A stretch of 64,000 nt of DNA. It comes from Stichopus chloronotus (Eukaryota > Echinodermata > Holothuroidea > Aspidochirotida > Stichopodidae). The position numbers and the translations under genes were made by a program. Under the pieces are notes generated by a model. The model was given only the letters and a program-made list of their open reading frames with translations. It did no database searches and had not been told where the DNA came from. Location of the stretch: the NCBI GenBank assembly GCA_021234535.1, contig CM037830.1, positions 37,510,937 through 37,574,936 on the forward strand, in the 5' to 3' direction. Numbering within the stretch: the first letter of the stretch is position 1; each line of letters opens with the position of its first letter. Positions 50,466 to 63,469 of this stretch are shown piece by piece.

Positions 50466-50896
50466 TGTAACAGAAATTCGGTGTTGCAAATAACAGAGTG
50501 ATTTATCCTCTTCCGTAGCTAATGTTGATTCCTTCTTTGCACAATTGTCGTTTCATGTTTTACCATGATTTTTTTTTGTAACGGGGTACCGCTCTTCTCC
50601 AAGGACCTTTTTTTTCAAAAACAAGACCCAGATATTGTTTCAGCTCTACGCACGTTTGTTTAACCTTTCCTTTATAGGCGCTTCTGCTACTGCGGAAGCT
50701 AGTCAGACGACCTTCTTTGGAGAAGGCAAAAACTTATTTTTAGAACCACGTGTTGAACGGGTTGGAAGTAAACAATGGTGATTGGTCAATGTTAGGTAGT
50801 AGCCCAAACTCCTTGCACGTATCTCTTTGTATTTTTTTTGAGTTGGGATGGTGGTTGGGCGTGGCCTAGAAACTGAAAAAGTAGAATTTTAGCCTG

Positions 50897-50906
50897 TGAT
50901 TGACAG
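50897..50906 (+). promoter_or_regulatory. PBX-MEIS-type composite site in the 5' LTR
   Basis: TGATTGACAG matches the well-known PBX/MEIS (TALE homeodomain) composite binding sequence exactly. The same site lies at 59204-59213 in the 3' LTR. A ten-base match can arise by chance; no function is shown. Confidence 0.35.
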
Positions 50907-51578
50907 GAAGGGGAAAATGAAGTTGTACAAAAACGAAATGTGCGAGAAAAGGTTGCGGAGAGTTCAAGATAGACAGGGCCAGTTACACGTGTAGACTTAG
51001 GAAATTCGTGCGTTATTGGGCGTCGTTATCTGTGACTTAACGTTAGTGTTTTTCCTTGGATTTGGAGAAATTTTGTGTACGGATTGTGCGGAGTAAAGTT
51101 GTGAGGTAAAGTCATTTTTCGTATTTCATAAAATCTCGTGTAATGAATCTATGTAGTTGAGAAGTAGAAATTCTACCGTCTTGTTTGCCTAAGAAACTGC
51201 TGTAACTGAAAACGCAAAGATTGTCGTAGAATTTTACAACGTTATGCATTGTAGCTAAAGCAATTTTAAGAAGAGCCGACTGATGACATCTAGTTAACTG
51301 TGAAAGATTAACATTTTTATTGCCGTAAGTCTTGAATGCAGGGTGCCGTAATTTTTAAGAAGTGTAACTCGCTGTGCATAAGACACTCGGAGCACAGATT
51401 TTCAATGTTGAGTAGGCCCAGTAACGACTGTAAGCTGTAACCCCGAACCTCTGCCGCCGAAAAAGAAATCCAAAAGATCACAGTACAGCCAGTAAAGGAA
51501 GAAGACCCCAATAATCGACGCCCCAGAACAGAACAGATTTCGCACTTGCGAGTACACCGCCAAGACACAGAAACAGAT

Positions 51579-51898
51579 CTCGCACGTTAGTGTGAGGATA
51601 CAGTTTGTCGCCAGAGTTGCGACTTTCACAGAGCTCGCACGTTGCGACAAGACGGCTCGCTGGCAGGGGTTGCGACCTTCACAGATCTCGCACGTTAGTG
51701 TGAGGATACAGCTTGACGCCAGGGTTGCGACTCTCACACAACTCGCACGTTGCGACAAGACGGCTCGCTCGCAGGGGTTGCGACTTTCACAGAACTCGTA
51801 CTTTGCGACAAGACGGCTCGCTCGCAGGGTTGCGACTTTCACAGAACTCGCACGTGCGACAAGATAGCTCGCTCGCAGGGGTTGCGACTTCGACAGGC
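51579..51898 (+). repeat. Six-unit tandem array inside the 5' LTR
   Basis: Six units of 55, 53, 55, 53, 52 and 52 bp each begin CTCG(C/T)AC and end near TTGCGACTTTCACAGA. Units 1 and 3 share a GTTAGTGTGAGGATACAG variant after the start; units 2, 4, 5 and 6 carry GCGACAAGAC(or T)GGCTCGCT-like sequence. The pattern shows that a two-unit block was duplicated before single units were added. An identical array occurs in the 3' LTR at 59886-60205. Such arrays in LTRs often act as enhancers, but that is inference here. Confidence 0.9.
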
Positions 51899-52163
51899 CT
51901 CGCACATTAAAGATAATAGGAAGGCCGTATTGATTGTATAGGGTACACACGACAGTACAGTTGTTATTATTACCATTCCTTCTTCTTATTCTCTGTTTTC
52001 TTTATTTTCGTTGTGGCTCAAAATGCAGTCATTTTAACTATGTTCGGACTGGAGAGAGGTTTTTTTTTTAACAAAGTTTTGTAGACCTGTAAAACAACTC
52101 TTTGGCTGTTTATTGAGACTCTGCATTCCTCTGGTCAGTTGAAAAGTCGGCCGACGTTACACG

Positions 52164-52181
52164 TGGTGGCAGCGGTGGGAT
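52164..52181 (+). promoter_or_regulatory. Primer-binding site complementary to tRNA-Leu
   Basis: Two bases after the LTR end, 18 bases beginning TGGTGGCAGCGGTGGG are complementary to a tRNA 3' end reading ...CCCACCGCTGCCACCA. This is the acceptor end, with added CCA, of animal tRNA-Leu (AAG/UAG type). The site would prime minus-strand cDNA synthesis. Confidence 0.85.
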
Positions 52182-52217
52182 CAAGACCAGTACCGAAAGA
52201 AGACAGAGACAAAAGGG

Positions 52218-53735
52218 ATGCAGAGTTCCTGGTCCACTTTAACAAGTAGTAACACGGACCTACAGCACAGATACAGCACAGACAGGGAACATATGGATCC
52301 GAATTTACGGAACCCCTTCTCAGAGACAACATCTGACAGAGGCCAGGACCACGTTCCATTGGTCGGAGAGCAGGCTGACCTGTTGACACAACATGCCCAA
52401 GGTGTTGCTGAACAGTTGCCATCGGGCTTTATAGTCCTGAGTGAAACAGGGTCCGCGGCTCCAGATAGGATGTCTCCTGCAGTGGAGAGCGTGCAGGCGA
52501 AGTCCGACGTACCACCACAGCCAAGTACCAACCCGTTACACTTAGGACTTCCTCCTATTGACGATGTAACAAGGCCCACCGAGAGACATGGGTGTAAGTT
52601 CAATCCATTTAATGTCTTTCCACAGGAAATGAGGAATGAAGCCGGTGACAGAGGTCTACAGCACAGTTCCAGGTTTTGGGAGGAACAGGACAGACAGAAC
52701 AGAGTGCATGCCCAAGATAACGGTTGGAGAGCCGGTGAGTCACTGTGGAGGCCCCAGTGGAACCCGTTCAGCCAGAACAGATTAAGAGAGGATTCCCCTC
52801 GCAGACAAGACGAATACGGAGCGAATTTTATGGGCCGTTCTGGAAGGGCCAATGTTATGCCACCACAGTTCGATGGGACATCAAACTGGGACGATTACAT
52901 GGTACAGTTTGAACTCATTAGTGAGATAAATGGCTGGACAGAACAGACGAAAGCACTTTATCTGGCGGCTAGCCTGAAGAGTCAAGCAAGGGCAGTCCTG
53001 AGTGATCTCGATGGTGAGAAGAGAAGAAACTACAGAGAACTTAAAGCTGCGTTGGGTAGACGATTTAGCCCAGCCAATCAAACTCAACTTTTTCGAGCCA
53101 TGCTGAAGAACAGAAACAGACAACCAAATGAGAGCCTCGTGGAACTAGCCCAGGAGATAAAACGTCTGGTGGTAAAAGCGTATCCAGAGGCGCCGTTTGA
53201 CATGGTCGAAACACTGGCTAAAGAACATTTCATAGACTCGTTGGGAGATGCAGATACTAAGTGGAGAGTCTACCAGTCCCGCCCAGAAAACCTTTCTGAT
53301 GCTGTAACCATTGCAGTGGAACTAGAGGCCTTTCACCTGGCTGAGCTGAAGAAAGGTAACATGAGAAGAGCAGCAGCAAGGGCAGTAATACCGACAGAAC
53401 ATGATGTTGGTGTGGACAAGTTTGAAAAACAGATCCAGCTTCTCGGTGAATCTCTAAAGAAGACTTTGGAAAGTTGTATAGAGAAGATCGAAGCAAGAAT
53501 TAAGGATGAATCAACCACGACTAATGGAGCACTTTCGAGTGATGAAAAAGCACAAGGCTCAAAGGGAGGACAGAATACGAACTGGCGAAACAGTGACAGA
53601 CTACCTCCTAAGTGCTGGAACTGCGGCAAGATAGGACACGTAAAAAGATATTGTCCTGAACAACCACAGAAAAAGACAGTTAAAGACCAGGGAAACGAAA
53701 AGAGACCGGACTTGGGGGTCGAAGGCCGGCAGTAA
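52218..53735 (+). CDS. gag: Gag polyprotein
   Basis: The 505-residue structural protein forms the particle that packages the element's RNA. The N-terminal 210 residues are polar and of low complexity. A retrotransposon-gag (capsid-like) domain spans about residues 215-385, starting at the PPQFDGTSNWDDY block typical of Ty3/Gypsy Gag and containing the F-I-D-x-L block. A CCHC zinc knuckle for RNA binding follows at residues 466-479 (Cys466, Cys469, His474, Cys479). The ATG at 52218 has G at -3 and is the first ATG in gag frame after the primer site. The frame ends in TAA at 53733, overlapping the open pol frame by about 50 bases. Gag lies just after the leader and should be the most highly made product. 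Confidence 0.95.
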   Translation: MQSSWSTLTSSNTDLQHRYSTDREHMDPNLRNPFSETTSDRGQDHVPLVGEQADLLTQHAQGVAEQLPSGFIVLSETGSAAPDRMSPAVESVQAKSDVPPQPSTNPLHLGLPPIDDVTRPTERHGCKFNPFNVFPQEMRNEAGDRGLQHSSRFWEEQDRQNRVHAQDNGWRAGESLWRPQWNPFSQNRLREDSPRRQDEYGANFMGRSGRANVMPPQFDGTSNWDDYMVQFELISEINGWTEQTKALYLAASLKSQARAVLSDLDGEKRRNYRELKAALGRRFSPANQTQLFRAMLKNRNRQPNESLVELAQEIKRLVVKAYPEAPFDMVETLAKEHFIDSLGDADTKWRVYQSRPENLSDAVTIAVELEAFHLAELKKGNMRRAAARAVIPTEHDVGVDKFEKQIQLLGESLKKTLESCIEKIEARIKDESTTTNGALSSDEKAQGSKGGQNTNWRNSDRLPPKCWNCGKIGHVKRYCPEQPQKKTVKDQGNEKRPDLGVEGRQ

Positions 53736-56700
53736 TTTCAAGACCCGTGGAAGCTAGTGCTAGGACAAACTGGGTGGCGGATGACGAATCTGGGATCTAT
53801 GTTAAAGGATATGTGCAGGGTACCCCAGTGACCTTTCTGGTCGACACTGGATCCAACATAACCATTATCAGACCCAGCGTGTACAGGTCCATACCGGAGT
53901 CCTGCAGACCACAGTTGAGGCCAGTGGATAACATGACGCTAGCAGACGGGATAACTGAGTTACGATGCGAGGGATCTGCGACTTTCGAAATCAAGTTGGA
54001 TGGACACGTTGTTGAAAATACAGTATGGGTTGCGGAAATTGGTTCGGAGGCATTTGTTGGACTTAAGTTTATGAGAAGGCATAACTACCATTTGGACGTG
54101 ATAGGAGGGACTCTGTCTTGGGGAGGACCACGGGAGAGCAGTGATGATTGTGCGGTGTCGGAGACTTCTTGTTGCCATGTCTTGGTTGAAGAGACAGTGG
54201 TGATTGCCCCGGAGAGTGAGGCAATGATACTTGGAAGAATATCCGAGGGAAAACCGTGCTGGGAATCTGCTCTGGTGGAACCAGCTGAAAAGTTTATGAA
54301 GAAGCATAAATTGTTGGTTGCCAAGGGTCTGGTGGATCCAAGAGAGGAGAGGATTCCGATGAGAGTGTTAAATCCTACGTCCGAAGTGATAAGAGTCTAT
54401 GGCGGTACTGTTGCAGGGACGTTAGAGGAGGCATCAGTTTTAAATGAACTGTCAACAGATAGGCATAACAGCAAACAAATGGTGTCGTTGGTGACGTCAA
54501 ACAGTGATCGCCGGGAACAAATCCCCGATCATGTGAAAGAAATGTTGGAAAATGGAACTGAGCACCTGACCGAGGGACAGCAAAGAGAATTAGCCGTGTT
54601 GCTGAAAGACTATGCAGATGTGTTTGCCAGATCACCGGAAGATTTGGGATACACTACAGTCGTGCAACACAAAATTAACACCGGCAACTCAAGTCCGATA
54701 AAACAGAGAGCAAGACGTGTTCCAGTACAAATGAGAGACCAGGAAAGAGAACTTTTGAAGCAGATGCTAGACGCAGGTGTGGTCGAACCCTCAGCGAGTC
54801 CTTGGGCATCCCCCATTGTACTTGTGAAGAAAAAGAACGGGTCCACAAGATTCTGCGTCGATTATCGGAAGTTAAACGAACTCACAGAAAAAGACAGTTA
54901 TCCAATCCCGATCATCGCGGACTCTCTGGATGCTATGGCTGGTGCCAAATGGTTCAGCACATTAGATCTGGCGAGTGGATATTGGCAAGTGGGTATGGCG
55001 AAAGAAGATAGGCAGAAGACTGCGTTCATAACGGGGAATGGGTTGTACCAATTCCGAGTTATGCCTTTCGGCCTATGTAACGCGCCTGCAACATTTGAAC
55101 GGCTGATGGATCGTGTGCTGTCAGGACTTCATTGGGAATCCTGCCTAGTTTATCTGGACGATGTCATTGTGTATGGGTCCTCATTCAGTGAGGCGAAGGA
55201 CAGACTGGAGAAAGTGTTTGACAGGTTCAGAAAGGCTGGTTTGAAACTTGGTCCCAACAAGTGTCAACTGTTTCGTAAGAGTGTGACTTACCTAGGACAT
55301 GTGGTTTCCAGTGAGGGGATAGCCACAGATCCTGAAAAGGTTAAAGCTGTAGAAGAGTGGCCTCGACCACAGAGACTCACAGACGTCCGCAGTTTCGTCG
55401 GGTTGTGTGGTTACTACCGCAGGTTCATTCGCGGATTTGCTGAGATTGCTACGCCACTCTTTAAGTTAACAGAAAAGACACAGAAGTTCGATTGGAACGA
55501 GGAATGTGAGATGGCATTCTCCAAACTCAAGACTGCGCTAACCACGGCTCCGGTGCTTTCGTATCCAAGGAGTACTGGCGACGGTTTCGTCCTTGATACA
55601 GACGCAAGTAATTTCGCCACAGGTTCCGTCCTGTCACAGATTCAAGATGGCGTGGAAAGGCCGATTGCGTACTTTAGCAAAACTATGACCAAGCAAGAAA
55701 GGCGGTACTGTATTACCAGGAAGGAGTTACTGGCAGTAATACAGTCCGTGAAACATTTCCATCACTATCTTTATGGGACTCGTTTCCATATAAGAACAGA
55801 TCATGCAGCCCTGAAGTGGCTTATGAGTTTTAAGCACCCAGAAGGCCAGATTGCCAGGTGGTTAGAGGTACTTGGAACATATAACTTTGAGATTTCTCAC
55901 CGTCCTGGACAATCACATGGAAATGCTGACGGACTGTCCCGACGACCATGCCCAGGGGAATGCCAACATTGCTCAAGGGCTGAAGTAGGAGACACAGAAC
56001 GTAGTGGACCGATGGAACTACGACCTAAAAAGTGGAAGAATGAGGAAACGACCCTTTCGACTGAAATCAGGGAAGAGCAAGTTGAAGTAAATACCAGCCC
56101 AAACACGACACAGAAAGTAATTGCTGCGGTAAACTTGTCGGGAAAACAACAAAGTCCCTGGCTACAAAAGTGGACAAATGAGACGATCAGAATTGAACAG
56201 ATAAAAGATGTAGCAACCAGAAAGATTATAGAATGGAAAGAGGAAGGAGAAACGAAACCAGTATGGGAGGTCGTATCCCCAGAGGGTCAAGAACTGAAAG
56301 CTTTCTGGGCACAATGGGATCGCCTTGAGATGAGGAATGGTCTTCTCTGTCGTAGGTGGGAGAACAACGAAGGGGACATAATTACATGGCAGTTGGTGGT
56401 ACCAAGGAGTTTGCAAAGTGAAGTGATAACTCTCCTCCACGACCACCCCACGTCTGGACACCTTGGAGTAAAAAGGACCATCAGGCGCGTTCAAGAAAGA
56501 TTTTATTGGCCGACATGGCGTCGTTCTGTAGAGAGATGGTGTAAAGCATGCCAAGTCTGTTGTTCGAGAAAAATGCCGAAAAAGAAGGCTCGTGCCAAGT
56601 TACAGACGTACCGTGTTGGAGTCCCTCTAGAACGAATAGCTCTAGACATCTTAGGACCGCTACCAACTACTGAAAGAGGAAATAAATATGTTATGGTTGT

Positions 56701-57850
56701 TGCAGACTATTTCACTAAGTGGGTAGAGGCTTACCCGTTAACCAACCAAACTGCGGAATCTGTCGCCGACAAGCTGGTTTCGGAGTTCGTCTGTCGTTTC
56801 GGCGTCCCAAGGCAAATTCACACAGATCAAGGCAGTAATTTTGAGTCCAATTTGTTTCGAGAACTCTGTAAACTACTGGGGGTAGAGAAAACCCGGACAA
56901 CACCATACCATCCTCAGAGTGATGGAATGGTTGAGCGTTTTAACAGAACCATAGAGGAGATGTTGTCTAAAGTAGTGGACGATGATCAACGGAATTGGGA
57001 TCAGTGTATACCGTTAGTACTGATGGCATATCGGTCGTCCGTACATGACTCCTCCGGGTTTTCCCCCAATGAAATGATGTTAGGGCGAGACATTGATCTG
57101 CCAGTCGATTTGTTATTCGACAGAGGTCCCACAGAGCCTAAACACAAAGAAGAGTATGTTACACAACTAGAGACGAGACTTCGTAAAGTACATGAGAGCG
57201 CCAGAGAGAAGATGAAGGTGGTAGCAGACCGACAAAAACAACGTTATGACACAAAAGCCGAAGATGGTGGATTCAATAAAGGAGATTTTGTGATGCTGTA
57301 CCGACCGAAGAGACGCCGAGGTTTGAGTCCAAAGTTACAACGATATTGGGAAGGGCCATTTATTGTGATTGACCGACTCAGCGATGTAACTTACCGCATA
57401 AGGAGAAACGAGAGGAGCAAGGCTGTCGTTGTGCATTTCAATAGGTTGAAGCTTTGTCAAGCAGACGTTTCGACCATGGGGCAGCCTTGTACAGCAAAGA
57501 GAGAACCACCACAGAAGAAAGACATAGGCGTTCAAACCGAGACAACCCCTCTTGATGATGGAGCCACAGAAGCATTACAGGGCAGAGAGACAAACAAAGA
57601 GAAACCTCAAGGAGCATCATCAGGAAAGCTCAAAACGACGATGCAGAGGGTACCTCGTGAGGCAAGAGACACGACCAGACAGGCCAAGAAAAAGACCACA
57701 AGGCAAAGGTTCAAGGGTCAAGGAAACAGGAAAGTATGTGCCCACGGGAAGGTAAAGGTAAAACCAAATGCGGGACGAAGGTCGAACCGTAAACGAAAAT
57801 TGCCCGCTTGGTTTGGTGACTTTGTGCAGACAGGACAGATTATCCTGTGA
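53684..57850 (+). CDS. pol: Pol polyprotein (PR-RT-RNaseH-IN), expressed by frameshift
   Basis: The -1 frame is open from 53684; residues below count from 53747. Aspartic protease: DTGS at 33-36. Reverse transcriptase: about 305-560, with catalytic Asp407 and the YLDD box at 469-472. RNase H: starts near Asp617 (DTDAS), with the KELLA glutamate, RTDHAAL and NADGLSR blocks. Integrase: an HHCC zinc domain near residues 895-935, then the DD35E triad Asp967, Asp1027 and Glu1063. A GPY/F-type module (YWEGPF) lies near 1197. The basic C-terminal tail ends with a lysine/arginine stretch and a PAWFGDFV motif. No chromodomain is visible. There is no good ATG at the start, which agrees with synthesis as Gag-Pol by frameshifting at 53690. 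No stop or lost catalytic residue was seen. Confidence 0.95.
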   Translation, partial: RPGKRKETGLGGRRPAVISRPVEASARTNWVADDESGIYVKGYVQGTPVTFLVDTGSNITIIRPSVYRSIPESCRPQLRPVDNMTLADGITELRCEGSATFEIKLDGHVVENTVWVAEIGSEAFVGLKFMRRHNYHLDVIGGTLSWGGPRESSDDCAVSETSCCHVLVEETVVIAPESEAMILGRISEGKPCWESALVEPAEKFMKKHKLLVAKGLVDPREERIPMRVLNPTSEVIRVYGGTVAGTLEEASVLNELSTDRHNSKQMVSLVTSNSDRREQIPDHVKEMLENGTEHLTEGQQRELAVLLKDYADVFARSPEDLGYTTVVQHKINTGNSSPIKQRARRVPVQMRDQERELLKQMLDAGVVEPSASPWASPIVLVKKKNGSTRFCVDYRKLNELTEKDSYPIPIIADSLDAMAGAKWFSTLDLASGYWQVGMAKEDRQKTAFITGNGLYQFRVMPFGLCNAPATFERLMDRVLSGLHWESCLVYLDDVIVYGSSFSEAKDRLEKVFDRFRKAGLKLGPNKCQLFRKSVTYLGHVVSSEGIATDPEKVKAVEEWPRPQRLTDVRSFVGLCGYYRRFIRGFAEIATPLFKLTEKTQKFDWNEECEMAFSKLKTALTTAPVLSYPRSTGDGFVLDTDASNFATGSVLSQIQDGVERPIAYFSKTMTKQERRYCITRKELLAVIQSVKHFHHYLYGTRFHIRTDHAALKWLMSFKHPEGQIARWLEVLGTYNFEISHRPGQSHGNADGLSRRPCPGECQHCSRAEVGDTERSGPMELRPKKWKNEETTLSTEIREEQVEVNTSPNTTQKVIAAVNLSGKQQSPWLQKWTNETIRIEQIKDVATRKIIEWKEEGETKPVWEVVSPEGQELKAFWAQWDRLEMRNGLLCRRWENNEGDIITWQLVVPRSLQSEVITLLHDHPTSGHLGVKRTIRRVQERFYWPTWRRSVERWCKACQVCCSRKMPKKKARAKLQTYRVGVPLERIALDILGPLPTTERGNKYVMVVADYFTKWVEAYPLTNQTAESVADKLVSEFVCRFGVPRQIHTDQGSNFESNLFRELCKLLGVEKTRTTPYHPQSDGMVERFNRTIEEMLSKVVDDDQRNWDQCIPLVLMAYRSSVHDSSGFSPNEMMLGRDIDLPVDLLFDRGPTEPKHKEEYVTQLETRLRKVHESAREKMKVVADRQKQRYDTKAEDGGFNKGDFVMLYRPKRRRGLSPKLQRYWEGPFIVIDRLSDVTYRIRRNERSKAVVVHFNRLKLCQADVSTMGQPCTAKREPPQKKDIGVQTETTPLDDGATEALQGRETNKEKPQGASSGKLKTTMQRVPREARDTTRQAKKKTTRQRFKGQGNRKVCAHGKVKVKPNAGRRSNRKRKLPAWFGDFVQTGQIIL
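53690..53696 (+). promoter_or_regulatory. -1 ribosomal frameshift site GGGAAAC
   Basis: The heptamer fits X-XXY-YYZ and is in the correct phase (gag codons GGA and AAC at 53691-53696). The pol frame is open from 53684 and is exactly -1 to gag; the gag stop follows at 53733. GGGAAAC is an established retroviral slippery sequence. Nine bases downstream, CCGG at 53706-53709 can pair with CCGG at 53726-53729, and GGGTC in that loop (53716-53720) can pair with GACCC at 53742-53746, giving an H-type pseudoknot. The pairings were found by eye. Confidence 0.8.
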
Positions 57851-57877
57851 TGATGTGGCTGTATTACAAACTTTTGT

Positions 57878-57899
57878 CTCTTGTTTTATTTACCTACAG
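57878..57899 (+). promoter_or_regulatory. Putative 3' splice site ahead of ORF3
   Basis: A pyrimidine-rich run (TCTCTTGTTTTATTTACC) ends in TACAG at 57899. The first ATG after it is the ORF3 methionine at 57910, with G at -3 and +4. Retroviruses use the same layout to express env from a spliced RNA. Possible donors include GTAAGT at 52594, GTGAGT at 52735 and GAG|GTAAAG near 51104 in the LTR; which is used, if any, cannot be told. Confidence 0.5.
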
Positions 57900-57909
57900 A
57901 TTAACAGAT

Positions 57910-58614
57910 ATGGCTGATGAAAGGCAGTATGAATGGAGTGACAAAGAAGTCGAAGCCTGTAGGGAATACCGATGTCAAGTGTGCAAACAAAGAATGGATA
58001 CTGGCAAAGAACTAAAGAAACACCTCGAGAAAGCACACCCCAAGAGGGACAAGAAGTTCCACTGCAAGGAATGCCAATACAGTACGGACAGACGCCATGA
58101 CCTAGAGAAACACGTCAGAAGGTTACACAAGAAGGAGACCGGTGACAAAGGTGAACAATCTGGCAAGAAACTGGAACTCACAGAGAAGGTGACAGACAAA
58201 TTCTACCCAACACCCCCGAAAGTGCAACGCAGATTCGACTATGCACCTGCCTTAGACGATATCCTGAACAGTCCAGTGTCACAACTGAGCCAGCCACCCA
58301 CCCCCCAGAGTCCATCATGTTCCCCAGTCGACAGGATTACAACAAAACAGATACCGTGGATCTCACCCAACAGACGTGGTCCCGATCCAAGGCTCTTCCG
58401 TCCCTCTACATCAAAGCCGGAGACAGAGACCGAAAAACATGTAGACCAAGTCCGACAGATGGCGAGACAGCTACCGTCAGATGAAACACAAATCGAATGG
58501 AGGGTTAGACGCATCACAGAGGGAAAGAGATTTGTGGTGACAACGGAGACTGCAGTTGGGAAAGACGGTTCATTCTACCGAGTGGTGCGGGAGGAGTACC
58601 AAAACAACGAGTGA
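57910..58614 (+). CDS. ORF3: two-finger C2H2 zinc-finger protein in the env position
   Basis: The predicted product is 234 residues from ATG 57910; the frame is open upstream to 57847 and could also start at ATG 57850, overlapping the pol stop as TGATG. Two adjacent classical C2H2 fingers each fit Cys-X2-Cys-X12-His-X4-His, at about residues 22-43 and 51-72. They are followed by a basic, lysine-rich linker, a proline/serine-rich middle and an acidic-basic C-terminal part containing IEWRVRRITEG. There is no signal peptide, membrane segment or fusion motif, so it is not an envelope protein. A nucleic-acid-binding accessory role is inferred from the fingers only. Expression may be by splicing (acceptor at 57899) or by reinitiation after pol. 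I do not recognise a described family. Confidence 0.85.
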   Translation: MADERQYEWSDKEVEACREYRCQVCKQRMDTGKELKKHLEKAHPKRDKKFHCKECQYSTDRRHDLEKHVRRLHKKETGDKGEQSGKKLELTEKVTDKFYPTPPKVQRRFDYAPALDDILNSPVSQLSQPPTPQSPSCSPVDRITTKQIPWISPNRRGPDPRLFRPSTSKPETETEKHVDQVRQMARQLPSDETQIEWRVRRITEGKRFVVTTETAVGKDGSFYRVVREEYQNNE

Positions 58615-58758
58615 CCCTGCAGGAGAGAAGACTAAATTTTTGTTACGGTTGAATTATTTCTTCTGCCCTATTTTAAAGTAATTGCAAATAATCTGCTTGG
58701 GAATTTCTGTGATTATGTTCATTGTGTTTACATAAATGCGTGGAAGCATTTCTCTTTT
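58615..58758 (+). other. Short 3' untranslated segment of the element
   Basis: AT-rich non-coding stretch between the ORF3 stop and the polypurine tract. Confidence 0.8.
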
Positions 58759-58772
58759 GGGGGAGGGGGTGG
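58759..58772 (+). promoter_or_regulatory. Polypurine tract
   Basis: GGGGGAGGGGGTGG directly abuts the first base of the 3' LTR, preceded by a T/C run. This is where plus-strand DNA synthesis is primed. It is interrupted by one T near its end. Confidence 0.85.
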
Positions 58773-60468
58773 TGTAACAGAAATTCGGTGTTGCAAATAA
58801 CAGAGTGATTTATCCTCTTCCGTAGCTAATGTTGATTCCTTCTTTGCACAATTGTCGTTTCATGTTTTACCATGATTTTTTTTTGTAACGGGGTACCGCT
58901 CTTCTCCAAGGACCTTTTTTTTCAAAAACAAGACCCAGATATTGTTTCAGCTCTACGCACGTTTGTTTAACCTTTCCTTTATAGGCGCTTCTGCTACTGC
59001 GGAAGCTAGTCAGACGACCTTCTTTGGAGAAGGCAAAAACTTATTTTTAGAACCACGTGTTGAACGGGTTGGAAGTAAACAATGGTGATTGGTCAATGTT
59101 AGGTAGTAGCCCAAACTCCTTGCACGTATCTCTTTGTATTTTTTTTGAGTTGGGATGGTGGTTGGGCGTGGCCTAGAAACTGAAAAAGTAGAATTTTAGC
59201 CTGTGATTGACAGGAAGGGGAAAATGAAGTTGTACAAAAACGAAATGTGCGAGAAAAGGTTGCGGAGAGTTCAAGATAGACAGGGCCAGTTACACGTGTA
59301 GACTTAGGAAATTCGTGCGTTATTGGGCGTCGTTATCTGTGACTTAACGTTAGTGTTTTTCCTTGGATTTGGAGAAATTTTGTGTACGGATTGTGCGGAG
59401 TAAAGTTGTGAGGTAAAGTCATTTTTCGTATTTCATAAAATCTCGTGTAATGAATCTATGTAGTTGAGAAGTAGAAATTCTACCGTCTTGTTTGCCTAAG
59501 AAACTGCTGTAACTGAAAACGCAAAGATTGTCGTAGAATTTTACAACGTTATGCATTGTAGCTAAAGCAATTTTAAGAAGAGCCGACTGATGACATCTAG
59601 TTAACTGTGAAAGATTAACATTTTTATTGCCGTAAGTCTTGAATGCAGGGTGCCGTAATTTTTAAGAAGTGTAACTCGCTGTGCATAAGACACTCGGAGC
59701 ACAGATTTTCAATGTTGAGTAGGCCCAGTAACGACTGTAAGCTGTAACCCCGAACCTCTGCCGCCGAAAAAGAAATCCAAAAGATCACAGTACAGCCAGT
59801 AAAGGAAGAAGACCCCAATAATCGACGCCCCAGAACAGAACAGATTTCGCACTTGCGAGTACACCGCCAAGACACAGAAACAGATCTCGCACGTTAGTGT
59901 GAGGATACAGTTTGTCGCCAGAGTTGCGACTTTCACAGAGCTCGCACGTTGCGACAAGACGGCTCGCTGGCAGGGGTTGCGACCTTCACAGATCTCGCAC
60001 GTTAGTGTGAGGATACAGCTTGACGCCAGGGTTGCGACTCTCACACAACTCGCACGTTGCGACAAGACGGCTCGCTCGCAGGGGTTGCGACTTTCACAGA
60101 ACTCGTACTTTGCGACAAGACGGCTCGCTCGCAGGGTTGCGACTTTCACAGAACTCGCACGTGCGACAAGATAGCTCGCTCGCAGGGGTTGCGACTTCGA
60201 CAGGCCTCGCACATTAAAGATAATAGGAAGGCCGTATTGATTGTATAGGGTACACACGACAGTACAGTTGTTATTATTACCATTCCTTCTTCTTATTCTC
60301 TGTTTTCTTTATTTTCGTTGTGGCTCAAAATGCAGTCATTTTAACTATGTTCGGACTGGAGAGAGGTTTTTTTTTTAACAAAGTTTTGTAGACCTGTAAA
60401 ACAACTCTTTGGCTGTTTATTGAGACTCTGCATTCCTCTGGTCAGTTGAAAAGTCGGCCGACGTTACA
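58773..60468 (+). repeat. 3' LTR, 1,696 bp
   Basis: It has the same length as the 5' LTR and matches it at a constant offset of 8,307 bp. All encoded chance reading frames are identical in both copies, and I saw no base difference in the stretches compared. It carries the tandem array at 59886-60205. Confidence 0.97.
59886..60205 (+). repeat. Six-unit tandem array inside the 3' LTR
   Basis: It is identical in unit number and order to the array in the 5' LTR, as expected because both LTRs are copied from one template during reverse transcription. Confidence 0.9.
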
Positions 60469-61596: not shown

Positions 61597-62510
61597 TCAA
61601 TTGGTTTTCAGTGTCATTCTTTTGGTCTTTCGTTAACTTACTTTCTGTTTCAACTTCTCTTCACAGCCAAGTGTGTTTCTGCACCCTAGGCTATGGATAT
61701 ACTGAGTGTTCAAAGCCTAACCTTACTCGTTACTTAGTTTCTTTGCCACACTAACTTAGTAGGAATACATAGGACTTCTTAATTAGGCCTAGGCGAAATA
61801 TGATGATGTCAATTGTCATTGACACTGGTAGGATACGCCACCACGTTCGAAGATAAAAAAAAACGTTGTGACCATTCACACGGAAATTTTCGTGTAAATA
61901 AGGGCACCTGTAGTCACAATTCACACGACGAAAACTTATTGGGGGCGCTGCGTTAGTTTGTACAGGCCAAAGAGTTCTTTGGTATACAGCCCGGCCCTCA
62001 TTACTGTACCTTCGTCGATGGCGTACTACTGATGACACTCCTAATCTAAAATTTGAGAGCAGAAACCGGTCTAGTTTGGTCCTAAGAACCATTCTTGTCG
62101 CAATACTACATCAAAAGTAAGGTTACTTCACCTAAAAGGTGAAAATGCTCCTAAGAAGGACATGCATAAAGACATGTATACCTCAGGGCATAACCTAACG
62201 AATTCTCATCAGGGTTCTTGGTCGTACTGCTGCGTTAGATAGTGAACCTCTAATCTCTAACCTCTAATCTCTAATTACCTTACAGTAGCTCCCAGCAGTC
62301 TTTATTGATAGGCTACCATACCACATGTCTTGACTTTTATTGACAGTTTACTGATTGAAATTATCATAGGAATTAGTCCCCCTCCCCCATTGCCCTTTGC
62401 TGATACGAAAATGTGGGTAAGCCTACTGCCCTCAACTGATACAGAAATTCCATATGAATAACATGGTGCTTGTGAGTGCCCTCATATAGAGTCGGCCTAC
62501 GAAATATTCT
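61597..62510. other. Non-coding stretch
   Basis: No supported gene. It contains a single diverged, inverted copy of the downstream minisatellite unit at 61874-61929 and a short CTAATCTCTAAC tandem near 62248-62277. Confidence 0.5.
61874..61929 (-). repeat. Diverged inverted copy of the 45-bp minisatellite unit
   Basis: On the minus strand this reads as a decayed version of the 62.5-kb unit, sharing the ATTCACACGGAAATTT, AATAAGG and CACAATTCACACG pieces in the same order. It lies about 600 bp from the array in opposite orientation. Confidence 0.65.
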
Positions 62511-62885
62511 GTGTGAATAGTGACCCCCTTTCAGGTGTCTTTCTCCCTACGAACATTTCCGTGTGAATAGTGCTTCCAAGTATCCTTATTCGTTCGAAAA
62601 TGTCCGTGTGAATAGTGCTTTCATGTGTCCTTATTCGTACGGAAATTTCCGTGTGAATAGTGCTTTCATGTGTCCTTATTCGTACGGAAATGTCCGTGTG
62701 AAAAGTGCTTTCATGTGTCCTTATTCGTACGGAAATGTCCGTGTGAATAGTGCTTTCAGGTGTCCTTATTCGTACGGAAATTTCCTTGTGAATAGTGCTT
62801 TCATGTGTCCTTATTCGTACGGAAATGTCTGTGTGAATAGTGCTTTCATGTGTCCTTATTCGTACGGAAATGTCCGTGTGAATAG
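62511..62885 (+). repeat. 45-bp minisatellite, 8 units plus a partial
   Basis: Units start with GTGTGAATAG at 62511, 62561, 62606, 62651, 62696, 62741, 62786, 62831 and 62876. The first unit is 50 bp and divergent; all others are 45 bp with few changes. Each unit ends in CGTACGGAAATGTCC or the perfect palindrome CGGAAATTTCCG. Because 45 is divisible by three, long repetitive frames are open on both strands (15-residue repeats); I treat these as by-products, not genes. Confidence 0.95.
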
Positions 62886-63469
62886 GCCCCACCTAAAAAA
62901 AAACGAGGAGTCCACTGAGCCTCCAGTTCCAAGTGGAGGTGCAGTAGTAGTGGCTTCTTATGTACATTCGTGTGTTATTTGCCATGGTTGCATATATACA
63001 CTTATGTGTTATTTTATAGTGCTTTGATTTGCGACTGCGCCTCCAGAGGCTCAGTGAGGTCTCATATTGTATTTTGTATTCTGTATTTGTACCTTGGCAT
63101 TGGTTGGCACAGTATCTCCACATCAGCTGTGCATCTGTACTGTACACAACTCATTGGACAACTGCAAAATAGTTGCTAGGCACTGTTGCTTTCATGCAGT
63201 GCCAGAGATGCGTTCTGATGTGTGGTTTTTAGACATGTTTTGTTAAAAATGAACTGCTCTAGACCTACAGGTACACTTTAAGTGAGTATAATTACTTTCA
63301 GAGGGTCTTCTTTCCAAGTAAAGTCACCGTCAAGCGAGTAACAACAATCTCAGTCAGCCCTGTAGAGGACAGGAGTCAAACTGTAATTAACTTAAACATC
63401 ACAGTACCTCAGACAATGACTCAAAGCGACTAGTAGCTAGCATTTTACAGGTTCACTGTGACTCTGACT
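62886..63469. other. Non-coding stretch
   Basis: No supported gene or recognisable element. Short open frames continue out of the minisatellite and are not considered real. Confidence 0.45.

What the first reader, a model, noticed from the sequence alone, without database searches (positions are those of the whole stretch)
57850..58614. A Ty3/Gypsy element carrying a two-finger C2H2 protein where retroviruses have env
The frame after pol is intact, 234 residues from its best ATG, and has two textbook C2H2 fingers side by side. It has no membrane or signal features, so it is not an envelope. Extra ORFs after pol in Ty3/Gypsy elements are mostly env-like; a tandem C2H2 protein there is unusual as far as I know. 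It could bind element DNA or RNA, act as a silencing suppressor, or guide integration. These roles are inference only.
Basis: partly seen in the sequence, partly recalled or inferred. Interest (0 to 1): 0.78.

Follow-up and report, generated by a model that had tools for sequence, protein, structure and literature searches.

The report
Zinc-finger gene in retrotransposon env slot
A jumping gene of the retrovirus-like Ty3/Gypsy kind carries, in the place where retroviruses keep their envelope gene, a conserved gene for a small zinc-finger protein that probably works in the cell nucleus as a regulator of the element itself, not as a coat protein.

Summary
A full-length Ty3/Gypsy element (50466-60468, LTRs identical) carries after pol a 234-codon frame (57910-58611) with two C2H2 fingers. 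It is not private to this copy: ten copies are 98-100% identical, and diverged families (about 24-49%) carry it at the same place. Of 33 RT matches at least 71% identical, 32 have the frame 2.4-3.5 kb downstream; at 60-66%, 0 of 33 by this query. Synonymous sites are saturated between families while the frame persists: purifying selection. The strongest predicted 3' splice site of the stretch read lies 3-14 nt before the ATG in five of seven families, as for a spliced env-type mRNA. Finger 2 keeps R/K, D/N, R/K at its base-contact positions in eight of eight sequences. Best reading: a nuclear regulator made from a spliced mRNA, most likely acting on the element's own LTR; RNA export, as by Cer1 CERV, is the main rival. 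Splicing, target and role are inferred, and a statistical test of LTR targeting was negative. Nine paper searches showed no described C2H2 ORF3. New variant of a known kind.

The parts
50466..52161 (+). 5' LTR, TGTAAC...GTTACA, identical to the 3' LTR
   Evidence: self-comparison, 100% over 1,697 nt; ends read
52164..52181 (+). primer binding site TGGTGGCAGCGGTGGGAT (complement of a tRNA-Leu 3' end; identity of the tRNA recalled, not tested)
   Evidence: same 18 letters after the LTR in L045 (B), L046 (C), L058 (G); two differences in L044 and L049 (B), one inserted base in L026 (D)
52218..53735 (+). gag, 505 aa, retrotransposon gag domain (below cut-off) and CCHC knuckle
53747..57850 (+). pol, 1,367 aa as listed, protease-RT-RNase H-integrase
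57872..57899 (+). predicted 3' splice site (polypyrimidine tract and CAG) of the ORF3 mRNA
   Evidence: best of 850 AG sites in the element; matrix recalled
57910..58614 (+). ORF3, 234 aa, two-finger C2H2 protein
57973..58038 (+). C2H2 finger 1 (contact positions variable between families)
58063..58128 (+). C2H2 finger 2 (R/K at -1, D/N at +3, R/K at +6 in eight of eight sequences)
58243..58266 (+). conserved [AW]PxLxxPhiPhi motif (APALDDIL), LxxLL-like
   Evidence: 7 of 7 sequences scanned; position
58381..58401 (+). conserved PDPRLFR motif
   Evidence: families A-E (first P is S in B and E, last R is P in E); absent in F; position
58495..58596 (+). conserved C-terminal segment EWRVRRI...TTETAVGKDGSFYRVVREE, no Pfam family
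52735..52740 (+). candidate 5' splice site CCG|GTGAGT in gag (highest-scoring donor of the element); a second candidate GGT|GTAAGT at 52594
   Evidence: not settled which, if either, is used
58759..58772 (+). polypurine tract
58773..60468 (+). 3' LTR; holds a 53/108-bp GCG-rich tandem array at about 59880-60216

Best explanation
ORF3 is a long-standing gene of a clade of Ty3/Gypsy retrotransposons. It sits in the env position and is probably expressed the way env is, from a spliced subgenomic mRNA, but it encodes a soluble nuclear nucleic-acid-binding regulator and no envelope. Shown here by sequence: the gene, its linkage to pol, purifying selection, the strong predicted acceptor before its ATG, and conserved finger-2 contact positions. 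Inferred: that it is spliced, that it enters the nucleus, and that it binds DNA of its own element, most likely the LTR, raising or protecting transcription through the conserved PxLxxPhiPhi motif as a cofactor contact (a Tax-like feedback gene).
For: 74 matches in the host genome, ten copies (window included) at 98-100%. ORF3 lies 2.4-3.5 kb downstream of 32 of 33 RT matches at >=71% identity, 18 of 36 at 67-70%, 0 of 33 at 60-66%, 0 of 3 below 60% (105 of the 150 listed RT rows and 62 of 74 ORF3 rows entered). Between families A-E ORF3 products are 29-40% identical while pS is 0.72-0.88; the neutral simulation gives 0.10 identity at 1.5 substitutions per site and 0 of 400 open pairs. dN/dS within families: A 0.43 (L040), B 0.43 and 0.24, D 0.27, E 0.37. 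The acceptor ranks first of all AGs of the stretch in each of the 11 copies tested of A, B, C, E, G, 3-14 nt before the ATG. Finger 2: -1 R/K, +3 D/N, +6 R/K in 8 of 8 sequences while +2 and +5 vary. PxLxxPhiPhi in 7 of 7. LTRs of A, B, C and G hold tandem arrays. A 250-aa homologue in an outside source, E 3.2e-52.
Against: No binding, RNA or localisation data. The LTR-target step failed its statistical test: neither GCG nor GAG triplets exceed dinucleotide shuffles in the LTRs of A, C (two copies) and D (z -0.9 to 1.5), and the LTRs of D and E have no comparable array. One related group seems to lack ORF3. dN/dS is higher in some comparisons: A 0.53 (L038) and 0.63 (L041), C 0.68 to 1.45 in four copies; nine of twelve A copies, one B and one C copy have non-synonymous but no synonymous changes in ORF3, so no ratio. 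The acceptor ranks only 8 of 232 and 2 of 55 in D and 3 of 60 in F. No donor is settled, and a gag donor would leave the gag ATG upstream of ORF3. In finger 2 position +1 is also mostly basic, so the pattern is not limited to the base-contact positions. Single-sequence models were poor (pLDDT 44, fingers 64).
Confidence: 0.45

Rival explanations
1. ORF3 is an RNA export or RNA-handling factor: it binds the unspliced genomic RNA in the nucleus and takes it past the retention of intron-containing RNA, as CERV does for Cer1 and Rev for HIV-1.
For: Same position and a predicted spliced message, hence the same problem of exporting RNA that keeps splice sites; [quoted passage not shown] C2H2 fingers can bind RNA (recalled).
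Against: Finger 2 shows DNA-type contact conservation; the conserved PxLxxPhiPhi motif lacks the last spacing of a leucine-rich export signal (consensus recalled); CERV is 517 aa with other domains, and sequence similarity to it was not tested.
Confidence: 0.25
2. ORF3 counters host silencing, for example by binding host chromatin or silencing factors, without reading the element's own DNA.
For: In A, B, C ORF3 products are 38-40% identical while RT is 69-82%; fast change would fit an arms race.
Against: Finger-2 contact positions are held constant; nothing in the sequence names a host partner.
Confidence: 0.12
3. ORF3 guides integration: it tethers the integration complex to DNA sites or chromatin.
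For: Finger protein encoded just behind integrase.
Against: Separate frame with its own ATG and predicted acceptor, not a pol fusion like a chromodomain; copies lie on many contigs, and target bias was not tested.
Confidence: 0.1
4. ORF3 is made by reinitiation at the pol stop (TGATG at 57848-57852), perhaps with a hydrophobic leader, or by spliced-leader trans-splicing, not by cis-splicing; its role may stay as above. (Concerns expression only, so it overlaps the other readings.)
For: TGATG overlap in this family and an upstream in-frame ATG in C; the short acceptor-to-ATG distances (3-14 nt in five families) resemble trans-spliced messages (recalled), and no donor is settled.
Against: No upstream in-frame ATG in the copies of B, D, E, F and G checked, whereas an acceptor-like AG lies near the start in all seven families, strong in five; whether the host trans-splices is unknown.
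Confidence: 0.25
5. A captured host-gene fragment or decaying frame of this copy only.
For: C2H2 fingers are abundant in animals (recalled).
Against: Ten near-identical copies and many diverged families at the same place; neutral decay excluded.
Confidence: 0.01
6. An envelope-like membrane protein.
For: Position; hydrophobic reading upstream of ATG 57910 in A and of the C start.
Against: The hydrophobic stretch is the polypyrimidine tract and has no start in five of seven families; C2H2 matches in 6 of 6 representatives and no envelope family in Pfam. No transmembrane predictor was run.
Confidence: 0.02

Closest known systems
Cer1 of Caenorhabditis elegans with CERV (Ty3/Gypsy family)
   Same: Frame between pol and 3' LTR, not env, nuclear regulator, spliced mRNA, acceptor before the ATG also in related Cer1 elements (PMC10309623: abstract, passages and one section seen)
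   Different: CERV is 517 aa, partly in the gag frame, with a possible C4 finger and globular domains; here 234-268 aa (F cut at 207 by the stretch read) with two C2H2 fingers first. No sequence comparison was run.
Bdelloid rotifer LTR retrotransposons with GDSL, DEDDy, TM or coiled-coil ORF3
   Same: Non-env ORF3 after pol, said to be expressed from spliced messages (PMC5408684, passages)
   Different: The words C2H2 and zinc do not occur in that text; enzymatic or membrane products
Grande gene23 and Retand additional ORFs of plants
   Same: Additional ORF between pol and 3' LTR, Grande product nuclear (PMC7264820, PMC11963269, passages)
   Different: Antisense with own promoter in Grande; the word zinc does not occur in either text
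MDG1-group sORF1/sORF2 of Drosophila
   Same: Accessory proteins of env-less Metaviridae (PMC11952523, passages)
   Different: sORF2 is a short transmembrane, fusogen-like protein, mostly upstream of gag
Complex-retrovirus regulators Tax, Tas/Bel1, Rev (recalled)
   Same: Spliced regulatory genes acting on the LTR or genomic RNA
   Different: Different proteins; the element here has no env

Membership tests
Ty3/Gypsy (Metaviridae) LTR retrotransposon | LTRs, target duplication, PBS, PPT | tested here: met
Ty3/Gypsy (Metaviridae) LTR retrotransposon | pol order protease-RT-RNase H-integrase | tested here: met
Ty3/Gypsy named clade (Mag, CsRN1 and others) | RT position in a reference tree | not tested
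   no reference set at hand; Gmr1 order (IN before RT) is excluded
Chromovirus | chromodomain at the end of integrase | tested here: not met
   no chromodomain among the Pfam matches of pol
Env-bearing Metaviridae (Errantivirus type) | envelope/fusion glycoprotein domain | tested here: not met
   no envelope family in Pfam scans; C2H2 matches instead
Env-bearing Metaviridae (Errantivirus type) | signal peptide and transmembrane segment | tested here: inconclusive
   no predictor run; an upstream in-frame ATG in A and C would read a hydrophobic leader, none in B, D, E, F, G
Cer1/CERV-type regulator | frame between pol and 3' LTR | tested here: met
Cer1/CERV-type regulator | made from a spliced mRNA | tested here: inconclusive
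   acceptor strong and conserved; no RNA data, donor unsettled
Cer1/CERV-type regulator | CERV H, M and G domains / sequence similarity | not tested
   CERV sequence not fetched
C2H2 zinc-finger protein | CX2-4CX12HX3-5H fingers | tested here: met

The most novel reading that the evidence does not exclude
ORF3 is a retrotransposon-encoded sequence-specific transactivator whose second finger and the tandem arrays in the LTR evolve together: families with Asp at +3 and an array (A, C, G) have GCG in a repeat unit, the Asn family with an array (B) has GAG and no GCG. That would be a Tax-like LTR feedback loop in an env-less Ty3/Gypsy clade, with a readable protein-DNA code. (Only G was a prediction made beforehand; the A and one G array also contain GAG/CTC, and the enrichment test was negative.)
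Probability: 0.15. Interest if true: 0.85.

Novelty: new variant of a known kind. Interest (0 to 1): 0.6.

Why it matters
Frames after pol are usually labelled env-like. Here a clade of Ty3/Gypsy elements keeps a DNA-binding-type protein there, with what looks like env-style splicing. If true, it would show that retrotransposons without env evolve regulatory genes like those of complex retroviruses, gives a protein family to look for in repeat libraries, and offers a natural set of finger variants paired with LTRs on which an element-host transcription contest could be tested directly.

Tried and rejected
Host-gene fragment and neutral decay: rejected. Envelope: rejected on domain content. LTR-target idea: a prediction was noted before the D, E and G LTRs were read; A, B and C had been seen already. 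Outcome mixed: the G array holds GCG as predicted, D and E have no comparable array, F was never read, and triplet counts did not exceed shuffles in A, C (two copies) and D (B, E, G were not put through that test). [ST]P enrichment in ORF3: 31 of 2000 shuffles reach the window value, but 154 to 1036 of 2000 in the six other sequences, so not pursued. Full-protein fold without alignment gave pLDDT 44; the finger piece gave 64, and Foldseek listed zinc fingers first but none with E below 0.41. Protein database: ORF3 alone no hit; six-family profile two hits; an eight-row profile that included one of those hits found none, which I cannot explain. Phage collection (ORF3) and viral contigs (RT piece): nothing. 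The RT tree of A, B, C, G, H is unrooted and splits G+H from A+B+C, so loss versus late gain of ORF3 is open. Host species was not identified.
Full report
The element. Between 50466 and 60468 lies a complete LTR retrotransposon: LTRs identical over 1,697 aligned nt, termini TGTAAC...GTTACA, target duplication CAAT, primer site and polypurine tract, gag of 505 aa with a CCHC knuckle and pol with protease, RT, RNase H and integrase in Ty3/Gypsy order and no chromodomain match.

The third frame. The frame after pol is open from 57847 to 58614; from ATG 57910 it gives 234 aa. Both fingers are CX2CX12HX4H. Pfam finds C2H2 families in the protein, under the curated cut-offs; zf-C2H2_4 matches 6 of 6 family representatives and zf-C2H2 5 of 6 at E <= 0.01; a profile of the six matches CTCF fingers in the PDB at E 2.4e-23. 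The in-frame ATG at 57850 would add a hydrophobic leader, but that leader is the reading of a polypyrimidine tract. Family C has a comparable upstream ATG 19 codons before its start; the copies of B, D, E, F and G checked have none.

It belongs to the element. A search of the host genome returned 74 matches (150 of 195 candidates scored). Ten copies, the window's included, are 98-100% identical. More diverged relatives fall into families that I call A (window) to G. ORF3 matches and RT matches were paired by position. The RT list is capped at the best 150 of 1,662 candidates; I entered 105 of its 150 rows, and 62 of the 74 ORF3 rows, 12 being second pieces of the same copy. RT identity >=71%: 32 of 33 have ORF3 2.4-3.5 kb downstream on the same strand; 67-70%: 18 of 36; 60-66%: 0 of 33; below 60%: 0 of 3. 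These are floors, since one query was used: family G (RT 68%) was missed by it but carries a finger-bearing ORF3, in the copy read broken into pieces in different frames. A group with RT 65% identical, with seven pol frames of 1,376 aa, shows no finger-bearing frame in the 1.4 kb read from about 3.0 kb after the RT start of one copy; where its pol ends was not determined. Eleven of the 62 ORF3 matches had no RT match nearby in the rows entered.

Selection. Aligned ORF3 products of A-E are 29-40% identical over 216-241 codons while synonymous differences are saturated (pS 0.72-0.88). For A, B and C ORF3 is 38-40%, RT 69-82% and integrase 58-71% identical by the same script, so ORF3 evolves faster than pol but is held. 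Neutral simulation from the window frame leaves 0 of 400 pairs open at each of four distances, with mean identity 0.10 at 1.5 substitutions per site. Within families dN/dS of ORF3 is 0.43 (A against L040; its RT 0.12), 0.53 (L038) and 0.63 (L041); 0.43 and 0.24 (B), 0.27 (D), 0.37 (E), and 0.68, 0.68, 0.91 and 1.45 for four C copies that carry stops or indels. Several copies in the other comparisons carry stops or indels too. Nine of twelve A copies, one B and one C copy have no synonymous change in ORF3 (1 to 3 non-synonymous in A, 2 in B, 7 in C) and give no ratio; integrase of the A copies gives equally noisy values, 0.43 to 2.58 where defined. The evidence for selection therefore rests on the comparison between families.

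Anatomy. The alignment of six families shows two fingers, a [AW]PxLxxPhiPhi motif (7 of 7 with the outside homologue), PDPRLFR (A-E with small changes, not F), and a C-terminal segment ending TETAVxxDGTxYRxxREE, weaker in E and F, that no Pfam family covers. In finger 2 the residues at -1, +3 and +6, which by the classical code (recalled) touch bases, are R/K, D/N and R/K in all eight sequences compared, while +2 and +5 vary; +1 is also mostly basic; finger 1 is not so held.

Expression. With a generic splice-site matrix (frequencies recalled), the acceptor ending at 57899 is the best of 850 AG sites of the window element. The corresponding site ranks first in all tested copies of B (4), C (3), E (2) and G (1), 3-14 nt before the ATG; in D it ranks 8 of 232 and 2 of 55, in F 3 of 60 (the E, F, G and second D stretches are only 0.7-1.4 kb). 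Donors are less clear. The highest-scoring donor of A and of C lies in gag; in B the highest lies in pol. A, B and C each have a GTRAGY beside an NPF codon triplet in gag. Using it would leave the gag start upstream of ORF3, so an LTR donor, reinitiation or spliced-leader trans-splicing stay possible.

How it may work. A soluble two-finger protein with a conserved DNA-reading face and an LxxLL-like motif fits a nuclear regulator. LTR tandem arrays exist in A, B, C and G; D and E have no comparable one. A note made before reading D, E and G predicted GCG for Asp-type and GAG for Asn-type fingers; arrays of A, C and G contain GCG and that of B GAG, but A and one G array also contain GAG/CTC, the D LTR shows no excess of GAG, and LTR-wide counts in A, C and D do not exceed shuffles. 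I keep this as a lead. The best studied parallel is CERV of Cer1, a non-env protein whose frame lies between pol and LTR, made from a spliced mRNA and needed for nuclear export of genomic RNA (PMC10309623, abstract, passages and one section).

Novelty. Nine answered paper searches and passages of nine papers showed no C2H2 ORF3 in Ty3/Gypsy; the library lacks most subscription papers and repeat libraries such as Repbase were not available, so it may be catalogued without comment. The six-family profile found two proteins in an outside source, E 3.2e-52 and 7.2e-23; their organisms are unknown and may be this one. ORF3 alone and an eight-row profile found none.

Noticed in passing
52218-53735 (gag codons 32, 129, 182); L045 and L047 gag: NPF tripeptides recur in the N-terminal part of Gag: 3 in A, 2 in B, 2 in C, none in pol or ORF3 of the window. 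NPF is an EH-domain ligand (recalled), so a link to host membrane traffic is possible.
   Followed up: partly
52594-52626; L045:765; L047:561: A GTRAGY donor-like site followed 32-35 nt later by CAG sits on or beside NPF codons in gag of A, B and C; too short for a usual intron, unexplained.
   Followed up: partly
59880-60216; L044, L045, L046, L047 and L058 LTRs: LTR tandem arrays differ by family: 53/108 bp in A, 22 bp in B, 8 bp TAACTGCG in C (5 against 14 copies in two insertions), 51 and 63 bp in G.
   Followed up: partly
L055 (C3:2315400-2316800): A related group with seven 1,376-aa pol frames (RT 65%) shows no finger-bearing frame in the 1.4 kb read before and into the LTR of one copy.
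   Followed up: partly
L044/L049, L025/L026, C22:12244978/12253244, L034/L039: Several relatives lie as head-to-tail pairs 7.4-8.3 kb apart that may share the middle LTR.
   Followed up: no
62483-62930: A tandem repeat of 45-bp period just outside the element, with open frames on both strands.
   Followed up: no
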